Source: Methanobrevibacter sp. TLL-48-HuF1
GTDB lineage: Archaea > Methanobacteriota > Methanobacteria > Methanobacteriales > Methanobacteriaceae
NCBI RefSeq assembly: GCF_023617305.1
Contig: NZ_CP081485.1
Location: 920,501-984,500, forward strand
Direction: 5' to 3'
DNA: 64,000 nt
The number at the start of each line of letters is the position of its first letter. The stretch's first letter is position 1. Positions 14,741 through 35,757 of the stretch are shown here, in pieces. A program made the position numbers and the translations under genes. The notes beneath the pieces are model-generated. The model was not told the origin of the DNA, made no database searches, and was given only the letters and a program-made list of their open reading frames with translations.

Positions 14741-16579
14741 TTAATCTTTAAGCCTAACAATAGCTTCCTTAAAGAAATCAGGAATTAGAGAGCGGTATAA
14801 TGGGCTTTTAAGAATCATATTAATATCCGAATCTAAAACATAAGTATAACATGAATCATCTTCTGCACGCATTCCACGACCGTAAGCCTGCATAAGAGTC
14901 ATTACCGTTTTATATGCATACCATTTTTGGTCTCTTTTACGTCTCATATTAACCTGCTTATCTCCAAGATAAGGGAAAGGAATCTTATAAATAATCTGGA
15001 ATCTGCATTTATCATAAGGTAAATCCACACCTTCACTCATTGACGGAGATACCAAAACCAAAGGATTCTCATCTTTTTCAAAATAATTCAATACTTCTTC
15101 CCTATTTTTTGAAGTATGTGAAATTAACCTTGAATTAGGCAAATTCTGATTAATATATCTTTGACATTTATAACTGTTAGTATGAATCAGACCTTTGTCA
15201 TTTTTATGTTTTTCAAGAATCTTTTGTAAAATAGGAATTGTTTTAGGTGCAGTATTTTTAATTCTGTTTGCAGACATTTTACCTGCCAAATCTAAAATAA
15301 TAGGCCTTTTTTCTTTTGAAAATGGACTGTCAACTTTAATATGATACACTTCATTAGGATTTAAACCTAACCATTTTGAAAACATCTTATGGGAAAGAAT
15401 AGTTGCACTCATAAAGATAACAACATCACCATATTTTAACAAATAATCATTAGCATAGTGATGAACTCTTAATGGCTTAAATTCAACACCTTTCTCATCA
15501 GAATCAATAACCCAGTTTTTAGGTTCTTTTTCAAGGTTATTTTTAAGTGATTTAAGTCTTCCAATAGTTGATCTTATTCTTTCTGCCTTATTTTTAGAAA
15601 CATCTTTAATATTAATATCCTCATAGCTTTCTGTAATAGCTGCAATTTCCATTATCCAATCTTCAATCTCGCCATCTTCCAATGTTTCTTTAGAAATTAC
15701 CTTATTAATATCCTTTTCTAAACTATGATTAAATAAATCAACTTCCATTGTATTCATTAATTTGTTTTCAATATTGTGAGCCTCGTCTAAAATCAGTAAA
15801 GACCTTGTACCGAAATGTTTTACATAATTTAACTCTAAAATTCCATAATCATAGTTCATTAAAGTAATTGGAGAATTGACTGCATTTGCTTTTTGATTCC
15901 AATAATGGCAGTGCTGGCCAGACTGATAAAATATAGTTCCGCCATGAGAATCTTCAAAAGCCAATTCTGCATCCAAAGTTGGATTTTTAGCTACTCCATA
16001 TGGGCAAAAAAAGTTACTTGAAGTTGGAGATGTCTTACAAGTCCCCATATCACAGGTAGACTCCAAATTATCATTTAAACAGGCAAAATTCCGCCTACCT
16101 TTAACTAATGGGAAATCAAACTCATCAGCGTATTGGGCCTGTAACTGTTTTGTCATTGTTAAAATATAAGCAGAACCATACATTTTAGCTAGTGTTGTAG
16201 CTATTGCAGATTTACCTGTTCCAGTTCCTGCTTCTAAAACGATGTATTTATATCCCTGACGAATTGCATCATTAATATCCTGTATAATATCCAGCTGTCC
16301 CATCCTAGGTGTTTCAAAAGGGAAATTTTCAATTATGTCCCTTTCAATGTGAGGGCATTTTCCTTGAAGATATGAAACTGTATCTTCATTTAATCTATGA
16401 TCTTCAATAGAATAAACTTCAGGAATTTCATCATCTAAAATAGAAGAAGTTCTTGGCTTTTGAAAGCTAAATAAATCAACAGAATCCTCATCTGATGAAG
16501 AAACCTCATTATTTGAATGACTGCAAGTACAATTACTTTTTAACATACCACAATTTGGACAAAAAATAGAATTAGACAT
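14741..16579 (-). CDS. XPD/DinG-type superfamily-2 DNA helicase with Fe-S cysteines
   Basis: A 612-residue helicase of the Rad3/XPD-DinG family. An N-terminal zinc-ribbon-like CPNCGMLKSNCTC is followed by an acidic linker. The motor has Walker A AGTGTGKSAIATTLA, an insertion with spaced cysteines (FACLNDNLESTCDMGTC...FFCPY) in the position of the family's [4Fe-4S] domain, and a DEAH box LLILDEAHNIENK. Motifs V and VI are seen as VSPSMSEGVDLP and AYGRGMRAEDD. It should unwind DNA 5' to 3' in repair. ATG 16579 is preferred over the TTG three bases upstream. Its 5' flank runs into the left copy of the direct repeat. Confidence 0.88.
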   Translation of the reverse strand: MSNSIFCPNCGMLKSNCTCSHSNNEVSSSDEDSVDLFSFQKPRTSSILDDEIPEVYSIEDHRLNEDTVSYLQGKCPHIERDIIENFPFETPRMGQLDIIQDINDAIRQGYKYIVLEAGTGTGKSAIATTLAKMYGSAYILTMTKQLQAQYADEFDFPLVKGRRNFACLNDNLESTCDMGTCKTSPTSSNFFCPYGVAKNPTLDAELAFEDSHGGTIFYQSGQHCHYWNQKANAVNSPITLMNYDYGILELNYVKHFGTRSLLILDEAHNIENKLMNTMEVDLFNHSLEKDINKVISKETLEDGEIEDWIMEIAAITESYEDINIKDVSKNKAERIRSTIGRLKSLKNNLEKEPKNWVIDSDEKGVEFKPLRVHHYANDYLLKYGDVVIFMSATILSHKMFSKWLGLNPNEVYHIKVDSPFSKEKRPIILDLAGKMSANRIKNTAPKTIPILQKILEKHKNDKGLIHTNSYKCQRYINQNLPNSRLISHTSKNREEVLNYFEKDENPLVLVSPSMSEGVDLPYDKCRFQIIYKIPFPYLGDKQVNMRRKRDQKWYAYKTVMTLMQAYGRGMRAEDDSCYTYVLDSDINMILKSPLYRSLIPDFFKEAIVRLKD

Positions 16580-16887
16580 CAAACAATATATTAGTTACAA
16601 TACTATAAATAAATTATAGAAGTGCATATGAAAACTAATATTCACAAAAATTAAATCATAAAGATGATAATATTACCAATACTAAAAAAATATTAGGAAT
16701 GTGAAATAGTCACCACTGATTAGAAAGAAAAATTATTTATATACTTATAAAAAATAAACAAAAAACTGATTAATTAAATTAAAATTTATACACTTAACCA
16801 TAAAATATTAATAGCTACTTTTAATTTAAAGTGTAAAGTTTAATGTAAAGTTTTTTAGTTTCATGCAAAGTTTTTTTATGGAAAATT
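16580..16887. other. Gene-free 308-bp stretch: direct-repeat copy plus AT-rich DNA
   Basis: It holds the helicase leader, the left copy of the direct repeat (16597-16673), and the unique left end of the inserted segment. Near the right end three related words, TGTAAAGTTTAA (16832), TGTAAAGTTTTTTA (16844) and TGCAAAGTTTTTTT (16864), lie just after the stop of the frameshifted gene; read on the minus strand they are A-rich and end in AAACTTTRCA. A TATA-like word lies near 16736-16742. No gene was seen. Confidence 0.6.
16597..16673 (+). repeat. 77-bp direct repeat, left copy
   Basis: Matches 18460-18536 over 77 bp with two differences (16603 C against T; 16614 T against C); the last 59 bp (16615-16673) are identical. 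It starts 18 bp upstream of the helicase ATG. The right copy ends inside the ATG of cbiL, so this copy is a duplicated cbiL leader without the gene. It therefore carries the same TATA-like ACTATAAATAAA, pointing into the inserted segment. Confidence 0.9.
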
Positions 16888-18459
16888 TTATTTAACATAA
16901 TATATGTAAGATCTGCCCTTTTTTACTTTATTAATCAAATTTAAACTCTCTAATTTATTTAAATCTTTTGAAGCAGTAACTCTAGATATTTCAAAACAAT
17001 TTAAATAATTATTGATAGTGAAAGTTTTATTTTCATTAACCATTAATGCAAATGCTTTTATTTGTCTTTCATTTAAACCTAATTTATCCAAAGGGTTCCT
17101 ATTATTTTTATATAATTCTGGATCAATAGTATTTTCATCCCTTGCCCATAATGTTACTTTAAAAAATTCCCCCATTTCTTCAAATTTAGGTTCTTTTAAA
17201 CCTTCCTCCAACATGGTTTTTTTCATTCTTGAAATACCCGTCCCATAATGTTCCATATATCCTGTTTTTGAAAATATATCACATATTATTTTATTTCTAT
17301 GTAATGGATTAGCTGACTCTAAAGTGGCTATAGTTAATGGTGGAATTAATTTACCCGGACTTGTAATTTCTATCCTATTATCATATATATAAAATGTAAT
17401 GGGTGATGAATTTATTTTATAGTCTCTATGTGCTACTGCATTTACAATAGCTTCTCTTACAACTTCAAATGGATACTCATTAAGGTCTATCCTATCCATA
17501 CCTACTACCACGAACTAGTTTTTGTATTTCTACTGAAAAATAATCGAACATCCTCCATTAAATCAATTAACGTATTATATGAATTTTTTCTATCAATTAT
17601 ATCTGCCCTAGTTCCATTTTTAAATTTAGCCATTTTGATTTCATGAGGTATGTTAAATTTATTGATATTTTTAGCAAAGAATAACGCACCAGCATTATTA
17701 AAATGAAATATATTATTTTTCATACTACCTGCATTAATTATAGTTAACATTTCCTCAGGAGTTTTTTCTTCTTTTAATTGTTTTAAACTATTATTATTAA
17801 CCGATTTAAAAAAAAGATTATAAGAATCCATATCAATATCTTTAGAACTTGAATAATCAATTATTCTTTTATCAAAATCATTTTCAACTATCTGATTATG
17901 GAGAAAATGCGTCAAACTTTTTTTAATTTCTTTAATTAATACTTCAATAGTGCCAAATGGTTTATATATGTGATTATCACTTATCTTAGCAATAAATTTT
18001 TCAATTTTACCATCCCTTTTAACAGAATCTTTTATAAAAATAAATACCTCATTTGATTTTTCATTAAATAAATCATATTCTGTTTCAGTAGGAGATAAAC
18101 CCGTGTCTAATATTGTTCCATATTCAGACCCTATTAATCCAATATAAATATCTGAATCTAAAACATTTTTTCTCCAAGTATCATTTGGTGATTGTCCAGA
18201 AGAAGGAATATTTTCAAAGACAAAAACTTTAAAAAAATCATTAAGGAAATCATCGTTTTCAATCGTACTTACAATAGCTTCCCTTTCTTCTTTAAATTCG
18301 ACCATATTACTGCTGATAAAAACTTTATATGCCATTTAAACCACCAAATATATTATATATTTTAATAATTTTAAAATTTTATTTTTATATACTAATTTTA
18401 TTTATAAGAATAGATGAATATTATTCCTACTACTTTTCAAATACAAAAGTGTATTATAA
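16674..18459. mobile_element. Inserted cargo segment between direct repeats
   Basis: About 1.79 kb of unique sequence lies between the two repeat copies (repeat-start to repeat-start 1,863 bp). It separates the helicase gene from cbiL, which would otherwise be divergent neighbours with about 110 bp between them. It carries only one frameshifted gene, which is visibly more AT-rich than its neighbours. No integrase, transposase or terminal inverted repeat was seen, so how it arrived is unknown. The duplication of the flank shows it is an insertion or a tandem-duplication derivative. Confidence 0.6.
16888..18335 (-). pseudogene. Frameshifted DUF4062 - GHKL ATPase - wHTH gene
   Basis: Two adjoining frames, 17505-18335 (276 aa) and 16888-17511 (207 aa), make one multidomain protein of about 480 aa. 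The first starts MAYKVFISSNMVEFKEERE, a DUF4062 (TIR-like fold) N-terminus to about residue 150, and continues with NNAGALFFAKNINKF, the region that precedes the ATPase in AlbA_2/Schlafen-type proteins; the AlbA_2 module itself is absent. The second has EYPFEVVREAIVNAVAHRDY, ITSPGKLIPP and EHYGTGISRMKK of the HATPase_c_4 domain, then a winged helix. The join at 17512-17513 has two bases where a codon is expected, so one nucleotide is missing. Start: GGTGG at 18341-18345. Programmed frameshifting or a sequencing error remain possible. Confidence 0.8.
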
Positions 18460-18536
18460 ACAATATTATAAATAAACTATAGAAGTGCATATGAAAACTA
18501 ATATTCACAAAAATTAAATCATAAAGATGATAATAT
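18460..18536 (+). repeat. 77-bp direct repeat, right copy (cbiL leader)
   Basis: Right partner of 16597-16673. It holds the TATA-like word near 18465-18475 and the whole cbiL leader down to the first two bases of its ATG. It also contains a 7-codon ATG frame (MKTNIHKN) ahead of cbiL, present in both copies. Confidence 0.9.
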
Positions 18537-19239
18537 GGCGAAAAAAGGAAAGTTAATTGGAATTGGTGTTGGACCTGGAGATACAGAATTACTTACTTTA
18601 AAGGCAGCTAAAGTTTTAGAAAGTGTGCCAGTAATATTCTCACCAAAATCAGCAAAAGAAAAGAAAAGTATAGCATTATCAATTGTAACACCAATTTTAG
18701 AAAAAAGACAGGATTATAAAAGATTAATGGTTGTAGAACCTTTATTCCCAATGATTGAAGATAAACAGGAGCTTGAAAAATATTGGAATAGTGCTGCAGA
18801 ATTAATAGCTAACTATTTAGATAGCGGAAGGGATGTGGCTTTTATAACTCTTGGAGATCCTTCAATATTCAGTACTTATTCATATACTCAAAAGAAACTG
18901 GCTAATAATTATGAAATAGAAACAATACCTGGAATTACTTCATTTACTGCTTGTGCAGCTGCTAAAAATGAACCATTAGTTGAAAAAAATGACATATTAA
19001 CTATTGTTCCAAAAATAGATGACAGACTAGACAATTTCCTGGAACACAGCGATTCAATTGTTTTAATGAAAGCTTCAAGAAATCCAAAAGAATTAGAATC
19101 AGCTATCGATGAAAAAAACAGACCTAAAGAAGTATTTTCAGTACAAAATTGTACCAGAGAAAATGAAAAAATAGTGGAAGGTTTCTCAACTGAAAAACCA
19201 TACCTTACAACAACTATAATCAAATTTACAGATGACTAA
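18535..19239 (+). CDS. cbiL: Cobalt-factor II / precorrin-2 C20-methyltransferase
   Basis: A 234-residue SAM-dependent tetrapyrrole methylase that methylates C20 in anaerobic cobalamin synthesis, needed by methanogens for methyl transfer. The family signature GIGVGPGDTELLTLKAAKVL is at residues 9-28, the second motif FITLGDPSIFSTYSY is in the middle, and ETIPGITSFTACAA follows. Length fits CbiL/CobI. Its leader lies wholly inside the right copy of the direct repeat; the ribosome-binding site is weak (GATGAT). It converges on the regulator gene with a 4-nt overlap. No other cobalamin gene is nearby. Confidence 0.92.
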   Translation: MAKKGKLIGIGVGPGDTELLTLKAAKVLESVPVIFSPKSAKEKKSIALSIVTPILEKRQDYKRLMVVEPLFPMIEDKQELEKYWNSAAELIANYLDSGRDVAFITLGDPSIFSTYSYTQKKLANNYEIETIPGITSFTACAAAKNEPLVEKNDILTIVPKIDDRLDNFLEHSDSIVLMKASRNPKELESAIDEKNRPKEVFSVQNCTRENEKIVEGFSTEKPYLTTTIIKFTDD

Positions 19240-22808: not shown

Positions 22809-22857
22809 ATTGTATTTAACATGATTTTTAAATACAATTTTTTGGGTGAAAATGAAG

Positions 22858-25800
22858 ATGAAATTAAAAAACATAATGCTGATAAGTTTAGTCTTATTAG
22901 TTTTTTTAACAATTAGTGCAGCAAGTGCTACAGACAATAGTGTAACTATTTCTAATAGTGATTATGCTGCAACTAATGTAGACTCAAATATGAATTTTGG
23001 GGGGGAAAATCCTTCATCAAATTCTGTAAATATTTATGTTAATACTACTGGTTCTGATGATGGTGCTGGTAGTAAGGAAAGTCCTTATAATAGCTTAAAT
23101 AAAGCAATATCAAGTGTAACTGAAACACAGGATACAGTTATTTATTTAAGCGAAGGAACATTTAGTGGAGAAAAAAATACAAATTTGAATATTGATTCTT
23201 CAGGCGGTAGTTTAACTATCATCGGTCAAGGTAGTGATAAAACCTTTATAGATGGTAAATATACAGGTATTGTATTTACATCAATGAGTAAAAATTCACT
23301 AGTAACATTGAAAGATATTGCTTTTGTAAATTGTAACTCCAGTACTGCTGCTCAAAATCAGGCACCAGTTATAACAAGTAATGCTATTTTAACAATAGAA
23401 AACTGTGTATTTGAAAATAATTATGGAACTGATGCTTATGGTGCTATTTATCAACGAAGTAATAATTTAACTGTTATAAATTCTACTTTTAAAGATAATT
23501 CAAATTTAAATAGAGCAGGAGCTATTCGAGCAGAAGGTCTGGATAATGTTAATTTAATTAATAATACATTTATTAATTGTTATGGAAGATCATCTAATAC
23601 TCAGGGATCATCAGTCTATTTAAATAGTATAACTAAAGCAAACATTGTTGGAAATAAATTTGCAAATATCATATCAAACGGTTATGATGCAAGTATATAT
23701 TTAAACTCTAATAATGGTTATTTAATTAACAATACTTTTATAAACTGTACTAATCAAGGAACGGATTATTCTATTGTATATTTAACTGGAAAGAATTATG
23801 TAAGTGGAAACAAATTCATTAATGCAAGTAATAATATGGGTAGTATCTACAGTCAGGGGACAATGAATTTACTTTTTACCCTATCGAATATTACTACAAA
23901 TAATACTAATTTTAGCATAACTGCCCGTGTAAGCGATATTGATGGAAATAATGTGTCACTATACAGATATGCATATGTTTATTTTTATCTAAATGGAACT
24001 TCATTAGGCCACTCCAGAATTATTAATAGTGTATCAACTTTAAATTATGCTGGTTTATTAGATAATGGAAAATATACTTTAACTGCTGATTGTTCTTATG
24101 GTGATGAAAATAGTAAGTGTATAGCTGGTAATTTAATTGTAAACATTGATAGGACTCCTTTAAATATTTGGGTTTCTGTTAATGGTAATGATACTTCCGG
24201 TTTAGGAACTGAAACAAGCCCTTTTAGAACTATTAAAAAAGCATTAGAATATGGTTTTAATAATAAAGTAGAAGTTATTATTCATTTAAAAGAAGGTAAC
24301 TATTCTGGTGCAGGTAATGTTAATTTAACTTTCGATACCGTAGGAATTTTAACTATAATTGGTGAAAATTATAATAAAGCTATTATTGATGGTAATTATA
24401 CTAGCCCTATATTTTTATCAATGAATAGGAATTCAATAGTAACATTGAAAAATATTACTTTTATAAATTGTAACTCCAGTACTACCAGTCAGGCTTCAGT
24501 TATAAAAAGTAATGCTCTTTTAACAATAGAAAACTGTGTATTTGAAAATAATTATGCTGTTGGTAGATATGGTGCTATTTATCAGCAATATAATAATTTA
24601 ACTGTTATAAATTCTACTTTTAAAGATAATTCAAATTCAAATAGGGCAGGAGCTATTTATGCATCTGACCTCAGTGTTAATTTAATTAATAATACTTTTA
24701 TTAATTGTTATGGAAGATCATCTAATACTCAGGGATCTGCAGTCTGTCTTCTTGGCGTATCTAAAGCGAATATTATTGGAAATAAATTTATAAACATCAC
24801 ATCAAACGGTCATGATGCAAGTATATATTTAAACTCTAAAGATGGTTATTTAATTAACAATACTTTTATAAACTGTACTAATCAAAGAACAGGTTATTCT
24901 ATTGTATATTTAGAAGGAAATAATTATGTAAGTGGAAACAAATTCATTAATGCAAGCAATAATCAGGGTAATATTTACAATGGTGGATATATGAATTTAC
25001 TTATCACTTTACTAAATACTACTACAAATAGCACTAATTTTAACTTAACTGCTCATGTTACTGATATTGATGGAAATAATGTGTCAATTAGTAGTTATAG
25101 TAGGTATATTTATTTTTATGCAAATGGAACTTTATTAGGACAAACCAAAGGTGTTACTAACAGTGTAACAACTTTAAATTATATTGGTTTATTAGATAAT
25201 GGAAAATATACTTTAACTGCTAATTGTTCTCATGGTACTGAATATAGTAAGTGTATAGCTGGTAATTTAATTGTAAATGTTGATAGGACTCCTTTAAATA
25301 TTTGGGTTTCTGTTAATGGTAATGATACTTCCGGTTTAGGAACTGAAACAAGCCCTTTTAAAACTATTAAAAAAGCATTAGAATATGGTTTTAATAATGG
25401 AGCGGATGTTATTATTCATTTAAAAGAAGGTAACTATTCTGGTGCAGGTAATGTTAATCTAACTTTAGATGCAATAGGAACTTTAACTATAATTGGTGAA
25501 AATTATAATAAAACCATTATTGATGGAACATCTACTAGTACATTCTTTAGTACAACCATATCTAATAAAATACTTTCACTTAATTTTGTAAATTTAACTT
25601 TTAATAATTTTGCAAGTGATGCATTTCAAAAGGCGGGTGTAATGACTTCACAGGCAGGAAAAACTATTATTAACGATTGTATTTTTACTGATTGTTTTTC
25701 TAAACATTATGTAGGAGCATTGTCTGTAAGCAATCTTATAATGGATAATTGTATTTTTGAAAAAATCATATCTGATTTAAATTCTGGTGAAGGAGCTATT

Positions 25801-28800
25801 ACCACAAAAAATGCTACTATTACTAATTCAATTTTTAAAGACATAATCGTCGGTGGTGGAAAACGTACTCAAGTTGAAAAGAGGTATAGTTATTTATCTG
25901 GAGCTATTATTGTATATACATTTAATAAAGATGAAACTGCTTATTTATATAGTGCAAATAATAAATTTGTCAATATAACTTCAAAATATTATGGAGGTGC
26001 AATAAGTTTTTCAGTAAAAGCTAGTTTTGGTTTGGGTTATGGTGTTTCTATTAATGATACTTTTATAAATAATACTGCCCAATATGGCGGAGCTATATTT
26101 GGTAATTGTAATGTATCTGGAGCTAAATTTATTAATAATACAGCTACATTTTCTGGAGGAGCATTATATTTAATTAACAACTGTACACTTGTAAATAATG
26201 AATATATTAATAATACTGCTAAAGGAGTTTTAAATGATATTTGTTTAAGTGATTATTACATTACTCAGATGGCGGGTTTAACTTTAACATTTACAGATAT
26301 CACTTCAAATACTTATATGAACGATATTGTTGCTACATTATCCAATAAAGATAATGCAATTATTTCCGGAGGCATTGTTAATTTTTATGTTGATGGAGTT
26401 CTAATTGGAAATTCTGCTTTGTCTAATAATAAGGCAAATTTAAATTATGTATTTAAAAATGGCCAGTATACTATTTCTGGAAATTATAGTAATGCATTAA
26501 ATGATTTAGTTATAAATAATGGAACTGCAAAAATCAATGTGATTCCTTTAACTATTACAGATTTATATGTTTCAGACAGTCTTGGAAATGATAATTATAA
26601 TGGAAGTTTATTATATCCATTTAAAACTATTAAAAAAGCAGTTTATTATGCTTATGGTTATGATAATGTAACAATTCATATTTTAGATGGTATTTATTCT
26701 GGAAATGAAAATACAAATATTATAATTAACACCGGTTTATTAACTATTACAGGAAGAAATGCTGTAATTGATGGAGGAAATAGTAATACATTCTTTACAA
26801 TTAATAATGCAAAAAACCTTATCATTGATAATTTAACATTTATTAATGGATTAATGTCTTCTAATGGAAATATTTACATTTCCAAAACATCAGGAGTAAC
26901 CTTAAAAAATGTTATATATATGAATAATAATGCAGTTGCAAGTTTAACTGCTGATGTTAGAAACATTTATAATAATGGTTATTTAACAATTATTGATTCT
27001 ATTTTTAAAAATAATGGTGCTGATAATAGCTATATAGATTCTGGTGTAATTTATAATAATGGTGATGTATCTCTTACAATTAATAATTCTAAATTTATAA
27101 ATAACACTGGTAGTTTCTCTGCTTGTATTTACCATATTAGAAATTATTTTGATAATTCATTAAATAATTGTTATTTCGATGATAATTATGGAAGGTATGT
27201 TAATTATGGTGCATTTAATATTACTGGGTGTAATTTTGTAAATAATCATGGAATATGTGTTCAAGGAAGTTTCAATGTAATTAACTCTAATTTCACCAGT
27301 AATCCAGTTATAGATGATCATTATGGTACTGGTGCGGCTTTAAATGGTCAAGGTGATGTTTTCAATTGTAACTTTATTAATAATTCTGCTTATGGTGATG
27401 GTGGAGCTATTGTAATAAGTGGAGGTTCAATTATAAAATGTAGTTTTATTAATAATACTGCAGGAGCTACTGGTTCTGGTAGTGGTGGAGCTATATTTAG
27501 CAATGAAAATACTGTTATAAGTAACTGTTATTTTGAAGGCAATAGTGTTTCAAATGGTAATCCTTCTCAAAATGGAGGTGGAGCTATCATGAATAGAGGT
27601 AGTTTAACTGTTATGAACTGTAATTTTGTTAACAATACTGCTTCTACAATTGGCGGAGCTATTCGTAATGGTATGGGATATTCTACAGATACTATTACTA
27701 TAATGTATTCTAATTTCACCGGCAACCATGCTGGAAGTTGGGGCGGTGCAGTTGCAAGTTATACTGATCCAAGTCAATACCAACAAGTAGCTAAAACTTA
27801 CATGACTGGCTGTATTTTTACTAATAATACTGCTGGCAGTCTTGGTGGGGCATATTATACAGCTCGTAGTTTAGGAAATACTATTGATGATTGTATTTTT
27901 AATGGTAATCAGGCTCCTTCTGGCGGTGCATTGATGATTAGTTCAGATTTAAAAATAACTAATTGTAGTTTTATAAAAAATAATGCTACTGAAGGTGGAG
28001 CTATTAGAAGTGGATATAGTTACTCTATTTCTGATTCTTATTTCTTTGAAAATAATGCTGTTGATGGCGGAGCAATATATCATTCAATTTATACTACTTT
28101 AAATATGATTAATTCTGTAATTTTAAATAATACTGCTTCCGGTTTAGGTGCTGCTGTATTTGGAGGTTCTAATACTATTTTAAATGATAATTGGTGGGGT
28201 TCTAATGATAATCCTAATAATGTATCTAATTTAGTTTATGGAGTACAAAATATTACCAACTGGTTCGTAGCTACTATAGATAATAATATCAGTAGTGTTT
28301 TTGTTGGAACTAATAATACTATTTCAATTGTGTTTAAAAATAGTAATGGTACTGATGTTACATATATAATACCTAATCGTGTTTTAGAGATTGTTTCTGC
28401 TAGTGCTAGTGTTAATTCTTCAACTGTTAACTTTAATAACAATACAGCTACTTTCACTGCCGTTACAAATTCTGAAGGAAATATTATCTGTACTGTTGAT
28501 AATCAAAAATTCTTAATTGATATTGTTAAAATGGAGTCTCTTATTAATGCAAGTGTTAATGGTAGAGTATATGGAAATAATGTCAGTATTGGTGTTGCTG
28601 TTACCGGTGTAGATAAAAGTCTTGCTAGCGGTACTGTTAATATAATTGTTAATGGTAAATCTTATACTGTTAATTTAATTAATGGAACAGCTTCTCTTAA
28701 TTTAGGAATTTTAAATGTTAATACTTATTCATTTACAGTTAATTATAGTGGAAATGATATGTATAAAAATTCATCTGCCACTTCATCATTTACTATAGTT

Positions 28801-31800
28801 AAGGCGGATACCAATGTTGTTATTACTGTTAAAGATATTCAATATGGTGAAATTGAAACTATAACTGTTAAAACCAATCCATTGTATAATGGAACTGGTA
28901 ATATTCTATTTGGATGGAGTACTAGCTATCCTGTTACTTTTGTAAATGGTGTTGCTGTTAGAAATTTCACCAATTTAGCTGTAGGATCTTATATTGTTAC
29001 TGCAACTACTGCAGGTAATGATAATTTCAATTCTCATGATTATGATCCATCTGGTAGTAGTTTCCGTGTTTCTGTTGCTGATACTAAAATTAGTATTAAA
29101 ACTGAAGATATAATTTTCGGTGATCCTGCTAAAGTCGTTATTACATCTACTCCATTGTTAAATGGAACTGTAATTTTATCTGTAGACAATGGTAATCCAA
29201 TTAATCTTAAGTTAATTAATGGTAGAGTTGAGTATGTATTGAATAAATTAGAACCTGGTAAACATAGTTTAAGTGCTGTTTATAATGGTGATGCTAATCA
29301 TAAACCTGCTTTTACTTCCGGTACTATTAATGTGGCTTATGTAGGTACTGTTACTAATGATACTTTCTTTAGTTTCTTTGATAGTAACGGTAATTTAAAA
29401 TCCGCTTTTGTTGGTAGTAATTTAACTTTTGTTGGTACTTTTAGTGGTCTTGATATAACTTCCATTAATATTAATCGTCCTATTGATTTATCAGGCAGTA
29501 ATGCTACTTTATTGGATATTATGTTAAATATTAGTGCTGATAATGTCAGTGTCAATAATTTTACTGTTGATATTTCTGATGATAGTGCTTTGACTTACGG
29601 TGTTTTAGTTAATGGTGATAGTGTTGTTTTAAGCGGTAATGTGATTAATGTTACTGGTGCTTTTGATTGTGATGCTTATGGTGTTTTAGCCGATTCTTGT
29701 AATGATTTAACTTTATTTAACAATACTGTTATTTTTGTTGGTAAAACTAATGGTACTGGTATTAATAAGGCTTTATCTTTTGATAATTGTACTGATTTAA
29801 ATATTATTGATAATATTATGAATATTACTATTCCTTCTGGTGCTATTTATGATGCTTCTTGGAATCTTGATATTAAAACTGGTGGTGTAGAAGTTACATC
29901 TTGTGACGGTGCTGTTATATCTAACAATATAATTGACCTTAGCTATGATGGTGTTTTTGGTTCTTATGATATTATTTATGCTGTTATGCTTTCTGATTCC
30001 GCTGATGTGATTGTTAGTGATAATATTATTGATTGTATCGGTAACTCTTATATTTATGGTCTTAGTTTAAGCAATTTAGATAATTTCACTGTTGTTGACA
30101 ATGTTATTGATTCATTTACTAGTAATCATTATGCTAATACAGTTGTTATTGGTGGTGAATCTTCCGGTATTGTAATGAATAATAATTTAAGTGCTGTTGC
30201 AAGTGCTGTTGCATATCCTGTTTATTCTTCTGTTTATGGTGCTAATTTAACTGTAGATTATGTTAACAATACTGTTTATGGTTTAGCTAATTCTGTTTAC
30301 GGATTTGAAGTAATGGGAACTGAAGAATCTATAATCAATAACACTATCTCTGCAGATGGTAATTTCACTATAGGTATTGCTTCTGCTTGTAAAGATTTAG
30401 TTGTTTCAGGTAATACAATTGTTACTAATGGTGCCGGTCTTGGAACTCCAACTACTGGTGATTCTATTAGTTCTGAAAATGTAGGTATTAAAATAAATTC
30501 CGGAAAAGCTGTAATTTCAGACAATAGTGTTAAAACTACTGGTAATTATACTGTTAAGTTAAATACTGAAGGTAATACTGTTGTTGATAATGAGCTAATT
30601 TCTCCTTATTATAAAGGTGATGTTAGTGTAACACCTTCTTCCGGTAACATTATTGCTAATAACACTCCTGTAATGTCTGCAAGTGTTTTAACTGGTAATG
30701 ATGTTATTATGTTCTTTAAAAACGGTACAAGATACGAAATTACTTTAACTGATATTAAAGGTAATGCTTTATTTAATCAAAGTGTTGTTATCAATATTAA
30801 TGGTGTAGATTATGTTAGGTTCACTGATAAAGATGGTAAAGCTAGTATAGGTCTTAATTTAAATACAGGTAATTATACTGTTACTGTTACATATAATGGT
30901 ACTGAGGATTATACTAAATCATCAATAACTAATAATGTGACTATTTTATCTACTGTTGAAAGTAAAAACATTACTAAAATCTATAGGAATGATACTCAAT
31001 ATCATGCTGCTTTTGTAGACGGAACTGGTAAAGTTTTAGCTGATAAAGAAGTTACTTTTAACATAAATGGTGTTTTCTATAAAAAAAATACTAATGCTAA
31101 CGGTGTAGCTACTTTAAATATTAATTTAAACAGCGGAACATACATCCTAACTGCTATTAACCCAGTAAATAATGAAATGGTTGGTAGTACAATTACTGTT
31201 TTATCTAGTATTCAGAGCAACAACATTACTAAATACTTCCAAAATGATACTCAGTATAGTGCTACTTTCTTAAACAAAGACGGTAGTTTATTAACCAATA
31301 CTGAAGTTACTTTTAACATAAATGGTGTTTTCTATAAAAAAAATACTAATGCTAACGGTGTAGCTACTTTAAATATTAATTTAAACAGCGGAACATACAT
31401 CCTAACTGCTATTAACCCAGTAAATAATGAAATGGTTGGTAGTACAGTTACTGTTTTATGTACTATTCAGGGTAATAATATTACTAAATACTTCCAAAAT
31501 GGTACTCAATATACTGCTACTTTCTTAAACAAAGACGGTAGTTTATTAACCAATACTGAAGTTACTTTTAACATAAATGGTGTTTTCTATAAAAAAAATA
31601 CTAATGCTAACGGTGTAGCTACTTTAAATATTAATTTAAACAGCGGAACATACATTTTAACTGCTATTAACCCAGTTAATGGTGAAATGTATTCTAACAC
31701 TATTAAAGTTTTACCTACTTTAACTGGTGAAAATTTAGTTAAAACATACGGAAATCCTGATCAGTATAAGGCTAAGTTAGTTGATGGTGTTGGTAAACCT

Positions 31801-31968
31801 GTTAATGGCGTTAATATTACTATGAATATTAATGGTATTTTCTACAACAAATTAACTGATAGTAATGGAGTAGCTAGTTTAAATATTAATTTAATGCCTG
31901 GTGAGTATATTATTACTTCATCTTATGGTCAAGCGGTGGTTTCTAATACTATTAAAGTGAATAGATAA
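22858..31968 (+). CDS. Giant adhesin-like protein (beta-helix and Ig-like modules)
   Basis: A protein of about 3,036 aa, the largest in the window. A signal peptide (MKLKNIMLISLVLLVFLTIS, then AASATD) directs export. It then has a long right-handed beta-helix region with NNTF/INC and GGAI repeats (to about 1890), three Ig-like modules (about 1890-2155), a second beta-helix (about 2160-2600), and five C-terminal Ig-like modules. It is very rich in Asn, Thr and Ser, with many possible glycosylation sites. No C-terminal membrane helix, LPXTG-like motif or pseudomurein-binding repeat was seen; it ends NTIKVNR. GGTGA at 22845-22849 fits ATG 22858 (8-nt gap); the GTG at 22846 is part of that site. 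Methanobrevibacter adhesin-like proteins are the nearest known group. Ligand unknown. Confidence 0.88.
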   Translation: MKLKNIMLISLVLLVFLTISAASATDNSVTISNSDYAATNVDSNMNFGGENPSSNSVNIYVNTTGSDDGAGSKESPYNSLNKAISSVTETQDTVIYLSEGTFSGEKNTNLNIDSSGGSLTIIGQGSDKTFIDGKYTGIVFTSMSKNSLVTLKDIAFVNCNSSTAAQNQAPVITSNAILTIENCVFENNYGTDAYGAIYQRSNNLTVINSTFKDNSNLNRAGAIRAEGLDNVNLINNTFINCYGRSSNTQGSSVYLNSITKANIVGNKFANIISNGYDASIYLNSNNGYLINNTFINCTNQGTDYSIVYLTGKNYVSGNKFINASNNMGSIYSQGTMNLLFTLSNITTNNTNFSITARVSDIDGNNVSLYRYAYVYFYLNGTSLGHSRIINSVSTLNYAGLLDNGKYTLTADCSYGDENSKCIAGNLIVNIDRTPLNIWVSVNGNDTSGLGTETSPFRTIKKALEYGFNNKVEVIIHLKEGNYSGAGNVNLTFDTVGILTIIGENYNKAIIDGNYTSPIFLSMNRNSIVTLKNITFINCNSSTTSQASVIKSNALLTIENCVFENNYAVGRYGAIYQQYNNLTVINSTFKDNSNSNRAGAIYASDLSVNLINNTFINCYGRSSNTQGSAVCLLGVSKANIIGNKFINITSNGHDASIYLNSKDGYLINNTFINCTNQRTGYSIVYLEGNNYVSGNKFINASNNQGNIYNGGYMNLLITLLNTTTNSTNFNLTAHVTDIDGNNVSISSYSRYIYFYANGTLLGQTKGVTNSVTTLNYIGLLDNGKYTLTANCSHGTEYSKCIAGNLIVNVDRTPLNIWVSVNGNDTSGLGTETSPFKTIKKALEYGFNNGADVIIHLKEGNYSGAGNVNLTLDAIGTLTIIGENYNKTIIDGTSTSTFFSTTISNKILSLNFVNLTFNNFASDAFQKAGVMTSQAGKTIINDCIFTDCFSKHYVGALSVSNLIMDNCIFEKIISDLNSGEGAITTKNATITNSIFKDIIVGGGKRTQVEKRYSYLSGAIIVYTFNKDETAYLYSANNKFVNITSKYYGGAISFSVKASFGLGYGVSINDTFINNTAQYGGAIFGNCNVSGAKFINNTATFSGGALYLINNCTLVNNEYINNTAKGVLNDICLSDYYITQMAGLTLTFTDITSNTYMNDIVATLSNKDNAIISGGIVNFYVDGVLIGNSALSNNKANLNYVFKNGQYTISGNYSNALNDLVINNGTAKINVIPLTITDLYVSDSLGNDNYNGSLLYPFKTIKKAVYYAYGYDNVTIHILDGIYSGNENTNIIINTGLLTITGRNAVIDGGNSNTFFTINNAKNLIIDNLTFINGLMSSNGNIYISKTSGVTLKNVIYMNNNAVASLTADVRNIYNNGYLTIIDSIFKNNGADNSYIDSGVIYNNGDVSLTINNSKFINNTGSFSACIYHIRNYFDNSLNNCYFDDNYGRYVNYGAFNITGCNFVNNHGICVQGSFNVINSNFTSNPVIDDHYGTGAALNGQGDVFNCNFINNSAYGDGGAIVISGGSIIKCSFINNTAGATGSGSGGAIFSNENTVISNCYFEGNSVSNGNPSQNGGGAIMNRGSLTVMNCNFVNNTASTIGGAIRNGMGYSTDTITIMYSNFTGNHAGSWGGAVASYTDPSQYQQVAKTYMTGCIFTNNTAGSLGGAYYTARSLGNTIDDCIFNGNQAPSGGALMISSDLKITNCSFIKNNATEGGAIRSGYSYSISDSYFFENNAVDGGAIYHSIYTTLNMINSVILNNTASGLGAAVFGGSNTILNDNWWGSNDNPNNVSNLVYGVQNITNWFVATIDNNISSVFVGTNNTISIVFKNSNGTDVTYIIPNRVLEIVSASASVNSSTVNFNNNTATFTAVTNSEGNIICTVDNQKFLIDIVKMESLINASVNGRVYGNNVSIGVAVTGVDKSLASGTVNIIVNGKSYTVNLINGTASLNLGILNVNTYSFTVNYSGNDMYKNSSATSSFTIVKADTNVVITVKDIQYGEIETITVKTNPLYNGTGNILFGWSTSYPVTFVNGVAVRNFTNLAVGSYIVTATTAGNDNFNSHDYDPSGSSFRVSVADTKISIKTEDIIFGDPAKVVITSTPLLNGTVILSVDNGNPINLKLINGRVEYVLNKLEPGKHSLSAVYNGDANHKPAFTSGTINVAYVGTVTNDTFFSFFDSNGNLKSAFVGSNLTFVGTFSGLDITSININRPIDLSGSNATLLDIMLNISADNVSVNNFTVDISDDSALTYGVLVNGDSVVLSGNVINVTGAFDCDAYGVLADSCNDLTLFNNTVIFVGKTNGTGINKALSFDNCTDLNIIDNIMNITIPSGAIYDASWNLDIKTGGVEVTSCDGAVISNNIIDLSYDGVFGSYDIIYAVMLSDSADVIVSDNIIDCIGNSYIYGLSLSNLDNFTVVDNVIDSFTSNHYANTVVIGGESSGIVMNNNLSAVASAVAYPVYSSVYGANLTVDYVNNTVYGLANSVYGFEVMGTEESIINNTISADGNFTIGIASACKDLVVSGNTIVTNGAGLGTPTTGDSISSENVGIKINSGKAVISDNSVKTTGNYTVKLNTEGNTVVDNELISPYYKGDVSVTPSSGNIIANNTPVMSASVLTGNDVIMFFKNGTRYEITLTDIKGNALFNQSVVININGVDYVRFTDKDGKASIGLNLNTGNYTVTVTYNGTEDYTKSSITNNVTILSTVESKNITKIYRNDTQYHAAFVDGTGKVLADKEVTFNINGVFYKKNTNANGVATLNINLNSGTYILTAINPVNNEMVGSTITVLSSIQSNNITKYFQNDTQYSATFLNKDGSLLTNTEVTFNINGVFYKKNTNANGVATLNINLNSGTYILTAINPVNNEMVGSTVTVLCTIQGNNITKYFQNGTQYTATFLNKDGSLLTNTEVTFNINGVFYKKNTNANGVATLNINLNSGTYILTAINPVNGEMYSNTIKVLPTLTGENLVKTYGNPDQYKAKLVDGVGKPVNGVNITMNINGIFYNKLTDSNGVASLNINLMPGEYIITSSYGQAVVSNTIKVNR
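23017..25600 (+). repeat. Large internal duplication of about 1,134 bp in the adhesin gene
   Basis: Two successive units of about 1,134 bp (378 codons), near 23017 and 24151, align along their whole length. The start of a third at 25285 keeps near identity for roughly 200 bp before diverging. The shared opening VSVNGNDTSGLGTETSPF occurs at about 24168 and 25302. Near identity at DNA level marks a recent duplication or gene conversion. Confidence 0.85.
30952..31968 (+). repeat. Four tandem 255-bp Ig-like repeats at the adhesin C-terminus
   Basis: Units begin at 30952, 31207, 31462 and 31717, each of 85 codons (the last slightly short, plus the stop). The first two share 144 identical bases (31048-31191 against 31303-31446). 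Units two and three are also nearly identical, and the fourth is divergent. The shared core is FNINGVFYKKNTNANGVATL. Confidence 0.92.
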
Positions 31969-32235: not shown

Positions 32236-35200
32236 GTGAAAAAAAATGCAATCTTTATATTAGTACTTATTTCAAGTATTTTAATATTACTTAATAATGT
32301 TAGTGCAACTGATGTGAATTCCACCGATGTTGATTGTTCTGTTAGTAATGCTGATGTTTCTATCAGTTCTGATGATAGTTTAAATGTGATTTCTGAACAT
32401 GAGGCTGTTAGTTCTGGTTCTACCCAGCATGTAATTTCTAAATATAATTATACTCAATATTTTGATGGATTTGGTAATTTAGATTCTGCTGCAGTAAAAA
32501 ATGGAGATACCTTGATTTTATCAGGAGAATTTGATAATAAACATTTCAATATTAATCGTCCTGTAAATATTGTTGGTAATAATAGTATAATTCGTGAAGG
32601 TTATCTTTATATCACCTCTTCTGATGTTAATGTTAGTAATATTAGGATTATTAACAATAATAGTCCTGGTTTAATTCTTTATAGGGCTTTAAATTGTAAT
32701 ATTTGGAATAATTCCATTGTAACTTATGGAGCTTTTGCCAGTATAGTTAATCCTGGTTCTAAATATAATAATATTTCTAATAATTATTTTAAATCTGGAA
32801 CTGTAAGTGGTAAATCCTATTCTACTATGGTTTTAGGTGGTGCTGATTATAATTATATAGCTAATAATTATTTAGAATGTGATAATGCCAATATAATTTA
32901 TATTTCCATTTGGGGCAGTGGTGCTTTCCATGGTGGTGAAGCTAACTTTAATATTTTTTATAATAATACTTTAAAATGTATGATTGATAATCCTGATGCT
33001 TTTTGTTATGGAATGCAAATGATGGGTTTTAATAACACCATTGATTCCAATGTTATTATAGGAACTTTCAGAGGGATTTCTACTTATGAAAATTCCACCG
33101 TGATTAATAATAAAATTTTTAATTTAACTGGTGTTGCTTATTTAAGTGCTGATCGTATTGGTGCTGATTACGGTATTTTTGTTGGAGATAATTGTTTAGT
33201 TTCCAATAATACCATTGCCAATTGCCTTATTAGTTCTTCAGCAATTTATTGCGGATCCAATTCCATTATATCCAATAATAATATTGACATTACTGGTGAT
33301 GGTTACGGTATTTATGCTGATGGAGATAATATTAATGTATTAAATAATATTGTTAGTACTGTAGGTAAAGCCAGTATTTATCAAACTGGTAATTTAACAG
33401 GACTTACTCTTTATGGCAATATTATTAATTCTTCTTCCGGTGTTGGTATTTTACTTGTAAAGTCATCTAATTCCAAATATCCCTCTAATGTTAGTGTAAT
33501 AAATAATATTGTGGTGATGTCTAGTAAATATTCTATTAATATTAAAGATGTAGATAAAAACAGCTATAATATTTCTGATAATAAATGTTATGGTATAATT
33601 TTAACTCCAGATAGTGAAATAAGTCATGGTAATGGAAGTTATACTATATATAATGTTTATGGCAGTTTTGATAATTTAACTGAGGCAATTAACAGTATTG
33701 TTGATGGTGGTGTTATTAATTTAATTGGAAATATTGAACTTATAAGTAGTGATTATTATTTACGCTCCGGTATTGTTATTGACAAGAATGTAACTATTTT
33801 AGGTAATAATTTCCAGATTAATGCAAATAAGTTTAATACTCGTATTTTCAATATTACTTCTACCGGTTCATTAGTTTTAAGGAATGCTGTTGTTTTAGGT
33901 GCTAATTTATTATTTAGTGATCTTCACTCTGAAGATATTAAAGGTATTGAGAAAGAATATTCCGGCGGTGCTATTTTTAATAGTGGAAATCTAACAGTTA
34001 TAGATTCCTCTTTCATACATAATAATGCTAATTTAGGTGGTGTAATCTATAATGAGGGTGTTGCTACTTTGATTAATTCTAACTTTAGAGATAATAAAGC
34101 TGTTTCTGTGAATCCTTACAAGTGGGATGATTATGGTAACTCTTTAGAAGATGATACTATTCTTGTTTTTCCTGAGGAAGGCGGTTGTGCCGGTGCTATT
34201 TATAATGATGGCTATTTAACTGTAATTGACTGTTATTTCTTTGGTAATGATGCTGAAAGAAGTTCCGGAGTTATTTTTAATAATGGTTTTTTAAATGTTA
34301 GTAACTCTGAATTTTTATCTAATAAGGCTTCTGGACCTGCTGCTTTTTGTGGAGCTATTTATGCAAACAGTACTACAATTCTTAAAGAATCCAATTTCCA
34401 CAGTACTCAAGCCAGTAGTGGTGGTGTGATTAATTCCAATAATGCTAATTTGACTATTGAGGATTGTAATATTCATAATAATATTGCTTATTATGATCAT
34501 TGGGGCTCTCAAGGTGGAGTAATTTTTTCTTCCGGAGGCAATATTGATTTAATCAATACTAATTTCACTGCCAATAGTGCTGGTGCTTCTGCAGGTGTTA
34601 TTGAAATATATGATATTCGTGGAAAAGCTAATACCAATTTAAGCATTACTGGCTGTAATTTTGATGATAATTATGGTGGTAGTAATGGTGTAATTGACAT
34701 GTTTTCTTCAGGTAAATTATACATTGAGAATTCCTCTTTTACCCGTAATAAAGGTGGTTTGGAAGTCAGTGTTATTAATAATCGTGGCGGTGCTGATATG
34801 ACTATTATCGATTCTGTTGTGAAAAATAATAATGCTGTTGGTGGTATTAGTAATGTAGCAGCTACTATTTATTCTAATGGAGCTAATAATGTGATTTCCG
34901 GTTCTGTTTTTGATAATAATAAAGGATCAAATGGTGGTGCTTTGTGGGTTACTGGTAAGACTATTGTTAGTGGTTCTAATTTTACTAATAATAAAGCTAT
35001 AATCGATGGTGGTGCAATTAAGAATACAGGTTCTTTAACCATTATAGACAGTTATTTTATTGGTAATAAAGGTAACGGTAATGCTATTCATACTTATAAC
35101 CGATTTAAGCCTAATGAGTTGATAGATAACGGTTATTTTGATAAAGATGGAAAGTATCATGTTATTATAATTAAACCTACCGAACCTGTTGTTCCTAGTA

Positions 35201-35757
35201 ATCCCGATGTTCCTACTAAGCCAGATGTCCCTAGTAAACCGGAGGTTCCTACTAAGCCAGATGTTCCTAGTAATCCTAATGTTCCTGTAACTCCAAGTAA
35301 TCCTTCTCAAGGAGGAAATACCGGTGGTGAGTCTAAAGGTAATACTTCAGCTGATAATGTGACTGGTGACGGAAATGGTACCTCTAGTGAGAATCCTGTA
35401 AATGGCAATACTAGTTCTGAGATTGTTGATGTTGTTATTGATGTGGTAAGTAATGGTAGTTCTATTAGTTCTGATTTAGATGGTCATTTTGCTGTTGGTG
35501 TAAGTGACATTATATTTACCGGTGTAGACAGTGCTGTTTCAAGTCCGTCCTCATCTTCTAGTTCTAGTTCTAGTAGTTCTATAGGAGAATCCAGTTCTAA
35601 TGAGCAGGGTTCTGAGTCTAAATCTTATGAGGTTTCTAAGAGGGTTAATAAGAGTGCAATATCCACTAATAATATTATTGTTACTATTGTTGTTATTCTA
35701 CTTGTTGCTATTCTAATTGGACTTGGTTATTATAGAAATAAGAAAAATGAAATTTAG
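32236..35757 (+). CDS. Membrane-anchored adhesin-like protein
   Basis: A 1,173-residue surface protein. A signal peptide (KNAIFILVLISSILILLNNV, then SATD) is followed by a beta-helix region to about residue 960 with NNxI and GGVI/GGAI repeats. A stalk follows: a proline-rich 6-residue repeat (VPTKPD/VPSKPE type, about 979-1025), a Gly/Asn/Ser stretch, and a run of about 12 serines near 1105. A membrane helix (about 1145-1165) and a basic tail YRNKKNEI end the protein, so it should be anchored with the helix region outside the wall. The GTG start is supported by a strong GGAGGTGA 6 nt upstream, with no competing ATG. It is separate from the first adhesin by a terminator. Confidence 0.9.
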   Translation: MKKNAIFILVLISSILILLNNVSATDVNSTDVDCSVSNADVSISSDDSLNVISEHEAVSSGSTQHVISKYNYTQYFDGFGNLDSAAVKNGDTLILSGEFDNKHFNINRPVNIVGNNSIIREGYLYITSSDVNVSNIRIINNNSPGLILYRALNCNIWNNSIVTYGAFASIVNPGSKYNNISNNYFKSGTVSGKSYSTMVLGGADYNYIANNYLECDNANIIYISIWGSGAFHGGEANFNIFYNNTLKCMIDNPDAFCYGMQMMGFNNTIDSNVIIGTFRGISTYENSTVINNKIFNLTGVAYLSADRIGADYGIFVGDNCLVSNNTIANCLISSSAIYCGSNSIISNNNIDITGDGYGIYADGDNINVLNNIVSTVGKASIYQTGNLTGLTLYGNIINSSSGVGILLVKSSNSKYPSNVSVINNIVVMSSKYSINIKDVDKNSYNISDNKCYGIILTPDSEISHGNGSYTIYNVYGSFDNLTEAINSIVDGGVINLIGNIELISSDYYLRSGIVIDKNVTILGNNFQINANKFNTRIFNITSTGSLVLRNAVVLGANLLFSDLHSEDIKGIEKEYSGGAIFNSGNLTVIDSSFIHNNANLGGVIYNEGVATLINSNFRDNKAVSVNPYKWDDYGNSLEDDTILVFPEEGGCAGAIYNDGYLTVIDCYFFGNDAERSSGVIFNNGFLNVSNSEFLSNKASGPAAFCGAIYANSTTILKESNFHSTQASSGGVINSNNANLTIEDCNIHNNIAYYDHWGSQGGVIFSSGGNIDLINTNFTANSAGASAGVIEIYDIRGKANTNLSITGCNFDDNYGGSNGVIDMFSSGKLYIENSSFTRNKGGLEVSVINNRGGADMTIIDSVVKNNNAVGGISNVAATIYSNGANNVISGSVFDNNKGSNGGALWVTGKTIVSGSNFTNNKAIIDGGAIKNTGSLTIIDSYFIGNKGNGNAIHTYNRFKPNELIDNGYFDKDGKYHVIIIKPTEPVVPSNPDVPTKPDVPSKPEVPTKPDVPSNPNVPVTPSNPSQGGNTGGESKGNTSADNVTGDGNGTSSENPVNGNTSSEIVDVVIDVVSNGSSISSDLDGHFAVGVSDIIFTGVDSAVSSPSSSSSSSSSSSIGESSSNEQGSESKSYEVSKRVNKSAISTNNIIVTIVVILLVAILIGLGYYRNKKNEI
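35191..35286 (+). repeat. 18-bp repeats coding the proline-rich stalk
   Basis: Five to six degenerate 18-bp units encode VPSNPD, VPTKPD, VPSKPE, VPTKPD, VPSNPN and similar. Such repeats usually form an extended wall-spanning stalk and can change length by slippage. Confidence 0.8.

What the first reader, a model, noticed from the sequence alone, without database searches (positions are those of the whole stretch)
16888..18335. DUF4062-GHKL-wHTH protein: a candidate defence or signalling gene, without AlbA_2
The reconstructed protein joins a DUF4062 (TIR-like) N-terminus, the linker normally found after AlbA_2/Schlafen, a HATPase_c_4 ATPase and a winged helix. DUF4062 seems to replace AlbA_2. 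Small cargo genes with TIR-like effectors are often anti-phage systems, so this is my best candidate for an undescribed defence gene. The defence role is an inference from domain types and the cargo-like setting.
Basis: inference. Interest (0 to 1): 0.68.

Follow-up and report, generated by a model that had tools for sequence, protein, structure and literature searches.

The report
Broken archaeal TIR-like NADase defence gene
A methanogen carries an inserted but frameshifted copy of a gene whose intact relatives join a TIR-like, probably NAD-destroying domain to an ATP-binding module, a likely anti-virus suicide protein that in many bacteria sits beside restriction-modification genes.

Summary
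Window 16888-18335 (-) carries two overlapping ORFs: ORF1 is DUF4062 plus a linker, ORF2 a GHKL ATPase (HATPase_c_4) plus a winged helix; no AlbA_2. Relatives encode both halves as one 463-511 aa protein, so the window copy is frameshifted and probably dead. It is an insertion between dinG and cbiL, flanked by a 59-nt exact direct repeat; 29 of 29 other genomes examined have the empty site. DUF4062 was reported in May 2026 as a TIR-like NADase domain (Klebsiella Swarozyc). ORF1 alone matches the solved KpSwz chain (2.6e-8), keeps the catalytic Glu (window E86; Glu in 47 of 47 full-length relatives) and is predicted to fold as TIR. The C-terminal half is the chassis of AlbA_2-HATPase_c_4 proteins (DIP2311, Z 25.8), on which the N-terminal domain was probably swapped several times. 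In 16 of 26 loci outside Methanobacteriales restriction-modification genes lie nearby, in four an upstream hsdM overlapping by 4 nt; Methanobacteriales loci lack a clear defence context. Best reading: a TIR-like NADase with an ATP-dependent sensor half, acting by abortive infection; a new variant of a known kind. NADase activity and defence are inferred, not shown.

The parts
17505..18335 (-). ORF1, 276 aa: TIR-like DUF4062 domain (Pfam 4-88; fold match 1-149) plus Schlafen-type linker
18078..18080 (-). codon of E86, aligned with the residue mutated in the solved KpSwz chain (taken to be E97A); Glu in 47 of 47 full-length relatives
16888..17511 (-). ORF2, 207 aa: HATPase_c_4 GHKL ATPase (residues 36-121, 17149-17406) and winged helix (about 141-205, 16897-17091)
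17505..17511 (-). 7-nt overlap of the start of ORF2 and the stop of ORF1, at the frameshift that splits the gene
16615..16673 (+). left copy of the 59-nt exact direct repeat (about 77 nt with the less exact part), identical to the empty site
18478..18536 (+). right copy of the direct repeat, ending in the start of cbiL
14741..16582 (-). left neighbour, dinG-like helicase (name recalled): side of the insertion site
18535..19239 (+). right neighbour, cbiL/cobI-like methyltransferase (name recalled): side of the insertion site

Best explanation
This is a frameshifted copy of a mobile anti-virus gene. The intact form is one protein in which a TIR-like NADase (DUF4062) takes the place of AlbA_2 on a linker-GHKL ATPase-winged helix chassis. 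Proposed mechanism: the C-terminal half, using bound ATP, senses infection or the failure of another defence system; it changes its association so that DUF4062 domains come together and hydrolyse NAD+, and the infected cell stops growing or dies before the virus matures. Shown: domain composition, conserved catalytic Glu and ATPase motifs, predicted TIR fold, insertion with direct repeat, patchy distribution, frequent neighbourhood of restriction-modification genes in bacteria, broken frame here. Inferred: NADase activity of this subfamily, ATP dependence, the trigger, the defence role, loss of function of the window copy.
For: Pfam DUF4062 and HATPase_c_4 well above cut-offs. ORF1 alone matches KpSwz in the PDB at 2.6e-8. 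Catalytic Glu 47 of 47; ATPase-region residues E19, N23, R28, G52, N72, G89, G91 of ORF2 47 of 47, H27 46 of 47. TIR and DNPH1-type folds Z 13-14 for the ORF1 model. DIP2311 Z 25.8 for the linker-ATPase part of an intact relative. Empty site in 29 of 29 other genomes fetched. Restriction-modification genes near 16 of 26 loci outside Methanobacteriales. Published: DUF4062 NADase, phage defence and abortive infection by KpSwz (PMC13174449; parts 1-2 of the text, Discussion and figure legends read).
Against: No activity or defence was tested. The fold match is as good to nucleoside hydrolases (DNPH1 14.3) as to TIR (SPARTA 13.7, SARM1 13.1), and the paper reports no NADase activity for three of four human DUF4062 proteins. 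None of the 20 Methanobacteriales loci showed a clear restriction-modification gene; two copies of one locus hold a weak HsdM-like match (26% identity, 8e-6 or weaker power). Some relatives lie between housekeeping genes. The random-gene control was from Methanobrevibacter only.
Confidence: 0.6

Rival explanations
1. An ATP-sensing transcription regulator: the winged helix binds DNA, and DUF4062 binds a nucleotide or NAD-like ligand without being a toxin.
For: The C-terminal half resembles DIP2311, which Pfam's DIP2311-like_C model calls a transcriptional regulator, and has a winged helix. The fold is shared with nucleoside hydrolases. In Methanobacteriales the gene stands alone, mostly away from defence genes.
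Against: The Glu needed for NAD+ cleavage in KpSwz is Glu in 47 of 47 relatives; patchy, inserted and often broken copies; restriction-modification genes near 16 of 26 bacterial loci.
Confidence: 0.2
2. The window pair is still functional as two proteins, translated by coupling at the 7-nt start/stop overlap.
For: Start and stop overlap. A natural two-gene form exists: L130 has a free 218-aa DUF4062 ORF overlapping a 517-aa HATPase_c_4 protein by 4 nt; one Legionella plasmid record also lists two overlapping genes.
Against: The window split falls after the linker, inside the stretch that aligns to DIP2311 as one unit (model 153-405). 17 of 20 loci in the genus have one ORF. Broken copies are common in the family.
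Confidence: 0.1
3. The frameshift is an error of the assembly and the window gene is intact.
For: The frames differ by a net single base with both otherwise open, and homology runs across the junction without visible loss.
Against: The genome is one contig, 99.95% complete; other copies in the family are broken too (6 of 40 near-full-length matches in the family carry one internal stop). No second assembly of the species was available.
Confidence: 0.15

Closest known systems
Swarozyc (KpSwz), DUF4062 TIR-like NADase, PDB 10wc/11cq/11cv, PMC13174449
   Same: N-terminal DUF4062 with the same catalytic Glu; ORF1 matches at 2.6e-8
   Different: Our profile matches only residues 5-154 of the 326-residue chain. 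KpSwz has a helical stalk and an HTH/winged portal-sensing domain; here a linker, a GHKL ATPase and a winged helix follow
AlbA_2 (Schlafen)-HATPase_c_4 proteins, DIP2311 (PDB 3lmm)
   Same: Linker, HATPase_c_4 and winged helix; Z 25.8 over model residues 153-405
   Different: The N-terminal AlbA_2 is replaced by DUF4062; AlbA_2 found in 6 of 7 other-type and 0 of 3 DUF4062-type proteins scanned. That DIP2311 itself begins with AlbA_2 is recalled
SIR2-Schlafen proteins of prokaryotic argonaute operons (PADLOC Aga_SIR2-PNTD1-PNTD2; orthogroup og_40 in PMC6299218)
   Same: An NADase-type N-terminus (function recalled) joined to a Schlafen-type protein; ORF2 matches the PADLOC model at 2.7e-13, positions 439-567 of 876
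   Different: SIR2 instead of DUF4062, and linked to argonaute and APAZ, which were not seen here
PrrC-type guards of type I restriction systems (recalled)
   Same: A toxic protein encoded beside hsdM/hsdS/hsdR; AAA_13 proteins, the domain of PrrC/RloC as I recall, also occur in L130 and L137
   Different: The predicted effector is an NADase, not an anticodon nuclease; no guard function is shown

Membership tests
DUF4062 (PF13271) | Match above the curated Pfam cut-off | tested here: met
   68.3 bits against 24.7
DUF4062 TIR-like NADases | Catalytic Glu conserved | tested here: met
   Window E86 aligns with the Ala of the solved chain taken to be E97A; Glu in 47 of 47 relatives
DUF4062 TIR-like NADases | TIR-like fold | tested here: met
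   Predicted model of ORF1, Z 13-14 to TIR and DNPH1-type chains over residues 1-149
DUF4062 TIR-like NADases | NAD+ cleavage | not testable with these tools
   Needs an enzyme assay
Swarozyc (KpSwz type) | C-terminal helical stalk and portal-binding HTH/winged auxiliary domain | tested here: inconclusive
   Sequence match covers only KpSwz chain residues 5-154 of 326; a remote relation of the winged helices was not excluded
AlbA_2 (Schlafen)-HATPase_c_4 proteins | HATPase_c_4 with the preceding linker | tested here: met
   86.3 bits against 26; DIP2311 Z 25.8 for an intact relative
AlbA_2 (Schlafen)-HATPase_c_4 proteins | N-terminal AlbA_2 domain | tested here: not met
   No AlbA_2 at E <= 1 in either window ORF
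Functional defence gene (window copy) | Intact reading frame | tested here: not met
   Two ORFs in different frames; one ORF in 17 of 20 loci of the genus
Defence-associated genes | Relatives near known defence genes | tested here: met
   16 of 26 loci outside Methanobacteriales near restriction-modification genes; not clear in the 20 Methanobacteriales loci

The most novel reading that the evidence does not exclude
The linker-GHKL ATPase-winged helix is a general sensor chassis whose N-terminal part is exchanged among AlbA_2, the TIR-like NADase DUF4062, SIR2 and even the methylase HsdM. In bacteria the DUF4062 form guards restriction-modification enzymes: it is made with HsdM, or between Res and Mod, and kills the cell by NAD+ depletion when a phage disables restriction. 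Methanogens carry the same effector as a free-standing, mobile and often inactivated gene.
Probability: 0.3. Interest if true: 0.76.

Novelty: new variant of a known kind. Interest (0 to 1): 0.52.

Why it matters
DUF4062 was assigned an NADase activity only in 2026, from proteins with another C-terminal half. This subfamily couples it to a GHKL ATPase and, in several bacterial phyla, lies beside restriction-modification genes. That makes it directly testable whether restriction systems carry an NAD+-depleting back-up, and would extend TIR-like immunity to gut and rumen methanogens, whose virus defences are little studied (recalled).

Tried and rejected
Giant protein: the second copy in the same genome was listed in an open frame of 3724 aa, but that frame runs through withheld bases read as X. 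Whether that copy has DUF4062 is unknown.

Viral carriage: 28 viral-contig loci matched, all within query residues 183-437, none reaching DUF4062. The patterns came from the ATPase part, so free DUF4062 genes of viruses would be missed.

Flanking repeat as a family trait: an exact repeat of 16 nt or more flanks the gene in only 1 of 19 other loci (18 nt, A/T-rich).

Programmed frameshift: no slippery motif seen by eye in the short stretch where a shift would have to occur; not tested otherwise.

KpSwz did not appear among the 50 entries shown in either structure list; that library ends in April 2026, so this says nothing. It was found by sequence.

Literature: 'DUF4062' gave 9 papers; by titles and abstract starts only PMC13174449 concerns its function. 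'HATPase_c_4' gave 3, none relevant by title. 'AlbA_2' + 'phage' gave 6, of which passages of PMC6299218 were seen. 'Swarozyc' gave 0, probably because it is printed with an accent. 'Schlafen' + 'type I restriction' + 'HsdM' gave 0. 'Methanobrevibacter' + 'defense systems' + 'TIR' gave 12, listing only. The supplement of PMC13174449, which holds its architecture figures, was not readable here, so this architecture may be shown there.

Counting: a first count of restriction-modification loci was 13 of 26. It left out L143 because one 'methylase' neighbour looks like a wrong-frame ORF. L132, which also has HsdM- and HsdS-like neighbours, is outside the 26 because it has no single full-length ORF. 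Neighbours under 80 or over 1000 aa, and family members, were left out of the 132-gene tally.

Full report
Observation. The window holds two overlapping minus-strand ORFs, 17505-18335 (276 aa) and 16888-17511 (207 aa). Pfam finds DUF4062 in the first (7e-19), and HATPase_c_4 (1.5e-24) plus a winged helix in the second; AlbA_2 is absent at E <= 1. No NCBIfam family reaches its cut-off. The best PADLOC match of ORF2 is to a SIR2-containing, argonaute-linked model (2.7e-13), over its middle part (the link is recalled from the label).

The gene is broken. In the window's genus 25 of 67 genomes, its own included, match ORF1. Of 20 loci from 17 of these genomes fetched with flanks, 17 hold one ORF of 463-511 aa, 38-47% identical to ORF1, in 16 genomes; 3 are broken. 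In L033, for example, ORF1 covers residues 2-276 and ORF2 277-480, so the window differs by a net one-base shift with no visible loss. The start of ORF2 overlaps the stop of ORF1 by 7 nt. In the wider family, 89 of 138 genomes have some match, often to the winged helix or ATPase alone; of 40 near-full-length matches that I count in the listing, 34 have no stop and 6 have one.

It is an insertion. dinG (14741-16582, -) and cbiL (18535-19239, +) flank it (names recalled). All 67 genomes have cbiL; 30 loci were returned, one of them the window's own, and in the 29 others dinG lies next to cbiL, about 80-130 nt away, with no gene between. Against the nearest genome (CbiL 97% identical) the window has one extra block, 1863 bp from repeat to repeat, and the site sequence on both sides of it: 59 nt exact, about 77 nt in all. 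The left copy lies in a stretch identical to the empty site over 113 nt. The right copy is 95% identical over 109 nt, its differences lying towards the insert. The repeat has no other strong match in the genome. How it was inserted is unknown. The genus is Methanobrevibacter by the titles of public contigs that match these loci; the nearest genome has the length that I recall for M. smithii PS.

The N-terminal domain. A May 2026 preprint (PMC13174449: parts 1-2 of the text, Discussion and figure legends read) reports that DUF4062 is a TIR-like NADase. Klebsiella KpSwz is activated by a phage portal protein, needs E97 and causes abortive infection. Of four human DUF4062 proteins only TEP1 was active. 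The main text names no HATPase, GHKL or Schlafen partner. ORF1 alone matches the KpSwz chain in the PDB at 2.6e-8, and the family profile at 1.4e-6. An Ala at chain position 84, which I take to be the published E97A, aligns with window E86. That column is Glu in 47 of 47 full-length relatives, while the Glu two residues before it is not invariant. A model of ORF1 from 29 sequences (pLDDT 86.5) aligns over residues 1-149 with TIR domains (SPARTA 13.7, SARM1 13.1) and as well with DNPH1-type nucleoside hydrolases (14.3). The fold class is supported; the reaction rests on the literature.

The C-terminal half. A model of the intact relative L102 (42 sequences, pLDDT 87.0, pTM 0.63) aligns with DIP2311 (3lmm) over model residues 153-405 at Z 25.8, rmsd 2.1 over 220 residues. 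Of ten proteins scanned, AlbA_2 was found in 6 of 7 that are not of DUF4062 type, the seventh being an HsdM-HATPase fusion, and in none of 3 DUF4062-type ones. A quick tree of the shared part (47 DUF4062-type rows, 22 others, ORF2) needs 6 changes of N-terminal type, at least 4 forced by well-supported branches. So the swap probably happened several times, but the sample was chosen by similarity to the DUF4062 form and some branches are long.

Distribution. One scan of public genomes kept the best 80 of 520 relatives. Forty-seven proteins in 46 loci are full length by my criterion (profile start <= 41, end >= 400): 20 in Methanobacteriales, 27 in 26 other loci of many bacterial phyla. In a quick tree of these the Methanobacteriota and the window ORF1 form one side of a branch (98), while Pseudomonadota, Myxococcota, Bacteroidota and others are scattered; one Casimicrobiaceae and one Chthoniobacter protein are close neighbours, which suggests transfer.

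Neighbours. PADLOC finds type I methylases in up to 13 of 132 genes within two positions of the 46 loci. In 132 genes sampled from 186 in 16 arbitrary stretches of 11 Methanobrevibacter genomes, no type I methylase is among the 25 families listed of 55, though single type II methylases and other models occur; this control is not matched for bacteria. By Pfam, N6_Mtase matches 12 of the 132; by the loci these belong to the 71 genes of the 26 loci outside Methanobacteriales. Among 64 neighbours of 24 relatives of AlbA_2 or other type it is not among the 25 families listed of 43, so in at most 1. By locus, 16 of 26 have restriction-modification genes within four genes: L124, L126, L129, L130, L133, L134, L135, L137, L141, L143, L144, L145, L149, L150, L154, L165 (L141 and L144 by fragments, L165 by a partial HsdS match). 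The same BLAST check, with seeds from these loci, shows such genes in 2 of 22 other-type loci, L178 and L181; the comparison favours the first set, which was also annotated by Pfam. In four loci an upstream hsdM overlaps the gene by 4 nt. In L149 the gene lies 5 nt after a ResIII gene and 66 nt before an N6_N4_Mtase gene; L154 and L144 are similar. A Sulfuritalea protein fuses HsdM to the same chassis and is followed by HsdS and HsdR.

In the 20 Methanobacteriales loci the check finds only one weak HsdM-like match (26%, L106, the same locus as L038). Other neighbours there are KAP NTPases in three loci, AbiJ, FRG and an OLD-like ATPase, a DUF4062-NACHT protein, and in six loci a recurrent protein that I took by eye for an integrase, though the one tested had no Pfam match. 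Several copies lie between housekeeping genes. This context alone would not show defence.

Verdict. The architecture and the TIR-like effector are well supported. A defence role by NAD+ depletion, controlled by an ATPase and winged-helix half, is the most likely reading (0.6). The window copy is very probably inactive. The effector is known since 2026; I did not find this architecture or its tie to restriction operons described (searches; supplement unread).

Noticed in passing
L178 2-2719 (Sulfuritalea): HsdM fused to the linker-HATPase_c_4-winged helix chassis, followed by HsdS, a 296-aa ORF and HsdR: a natural fusion that suggests physical contact of chassis and methylase.
   Followed up: partly
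L130 9115-9771 and 9768-11321 (Chlorobiaceae): A free 218-aa DUF4062 ORF overlaps a separate HATPase_c_4 protein by 4 nt, followed by an AAA_13 protein: a two-gene form of the same pair, in the same operon as the fused form.
   Followed up: partly
L145 3904-5463 and 5998-7590 (Casimicrobiaceae): Two DUF4062-HATPase_c_4 proteins of different branches in one operon with HsdM and HsdS-like genes.
   Followed up: no
L035 2119-6330 (G021): A 1403-aa DUF4062-NACHT (NPHP3_N) protein in the same stretch as an intact copy of the gene and a KAP NTPase.
   Followed up: no
window 16597-16673 and 18460-18537: The dinG-cbiL intergenic sequence is present on both sides of the insert, the right copy diverging towards the insert; how a single gene came in with so long a repeat is unexplained.
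   Followed up: partly
L034 2412-2729: A 105-aa remnant of the C-terminal part of the family directly beside an intact copy.
   Followed up: no
window 22846-31968 and 32236-35757 (+): Very long ORFs (3040 and 1173 aa), perhaps surface proteins; not examined.
   Followed up: no
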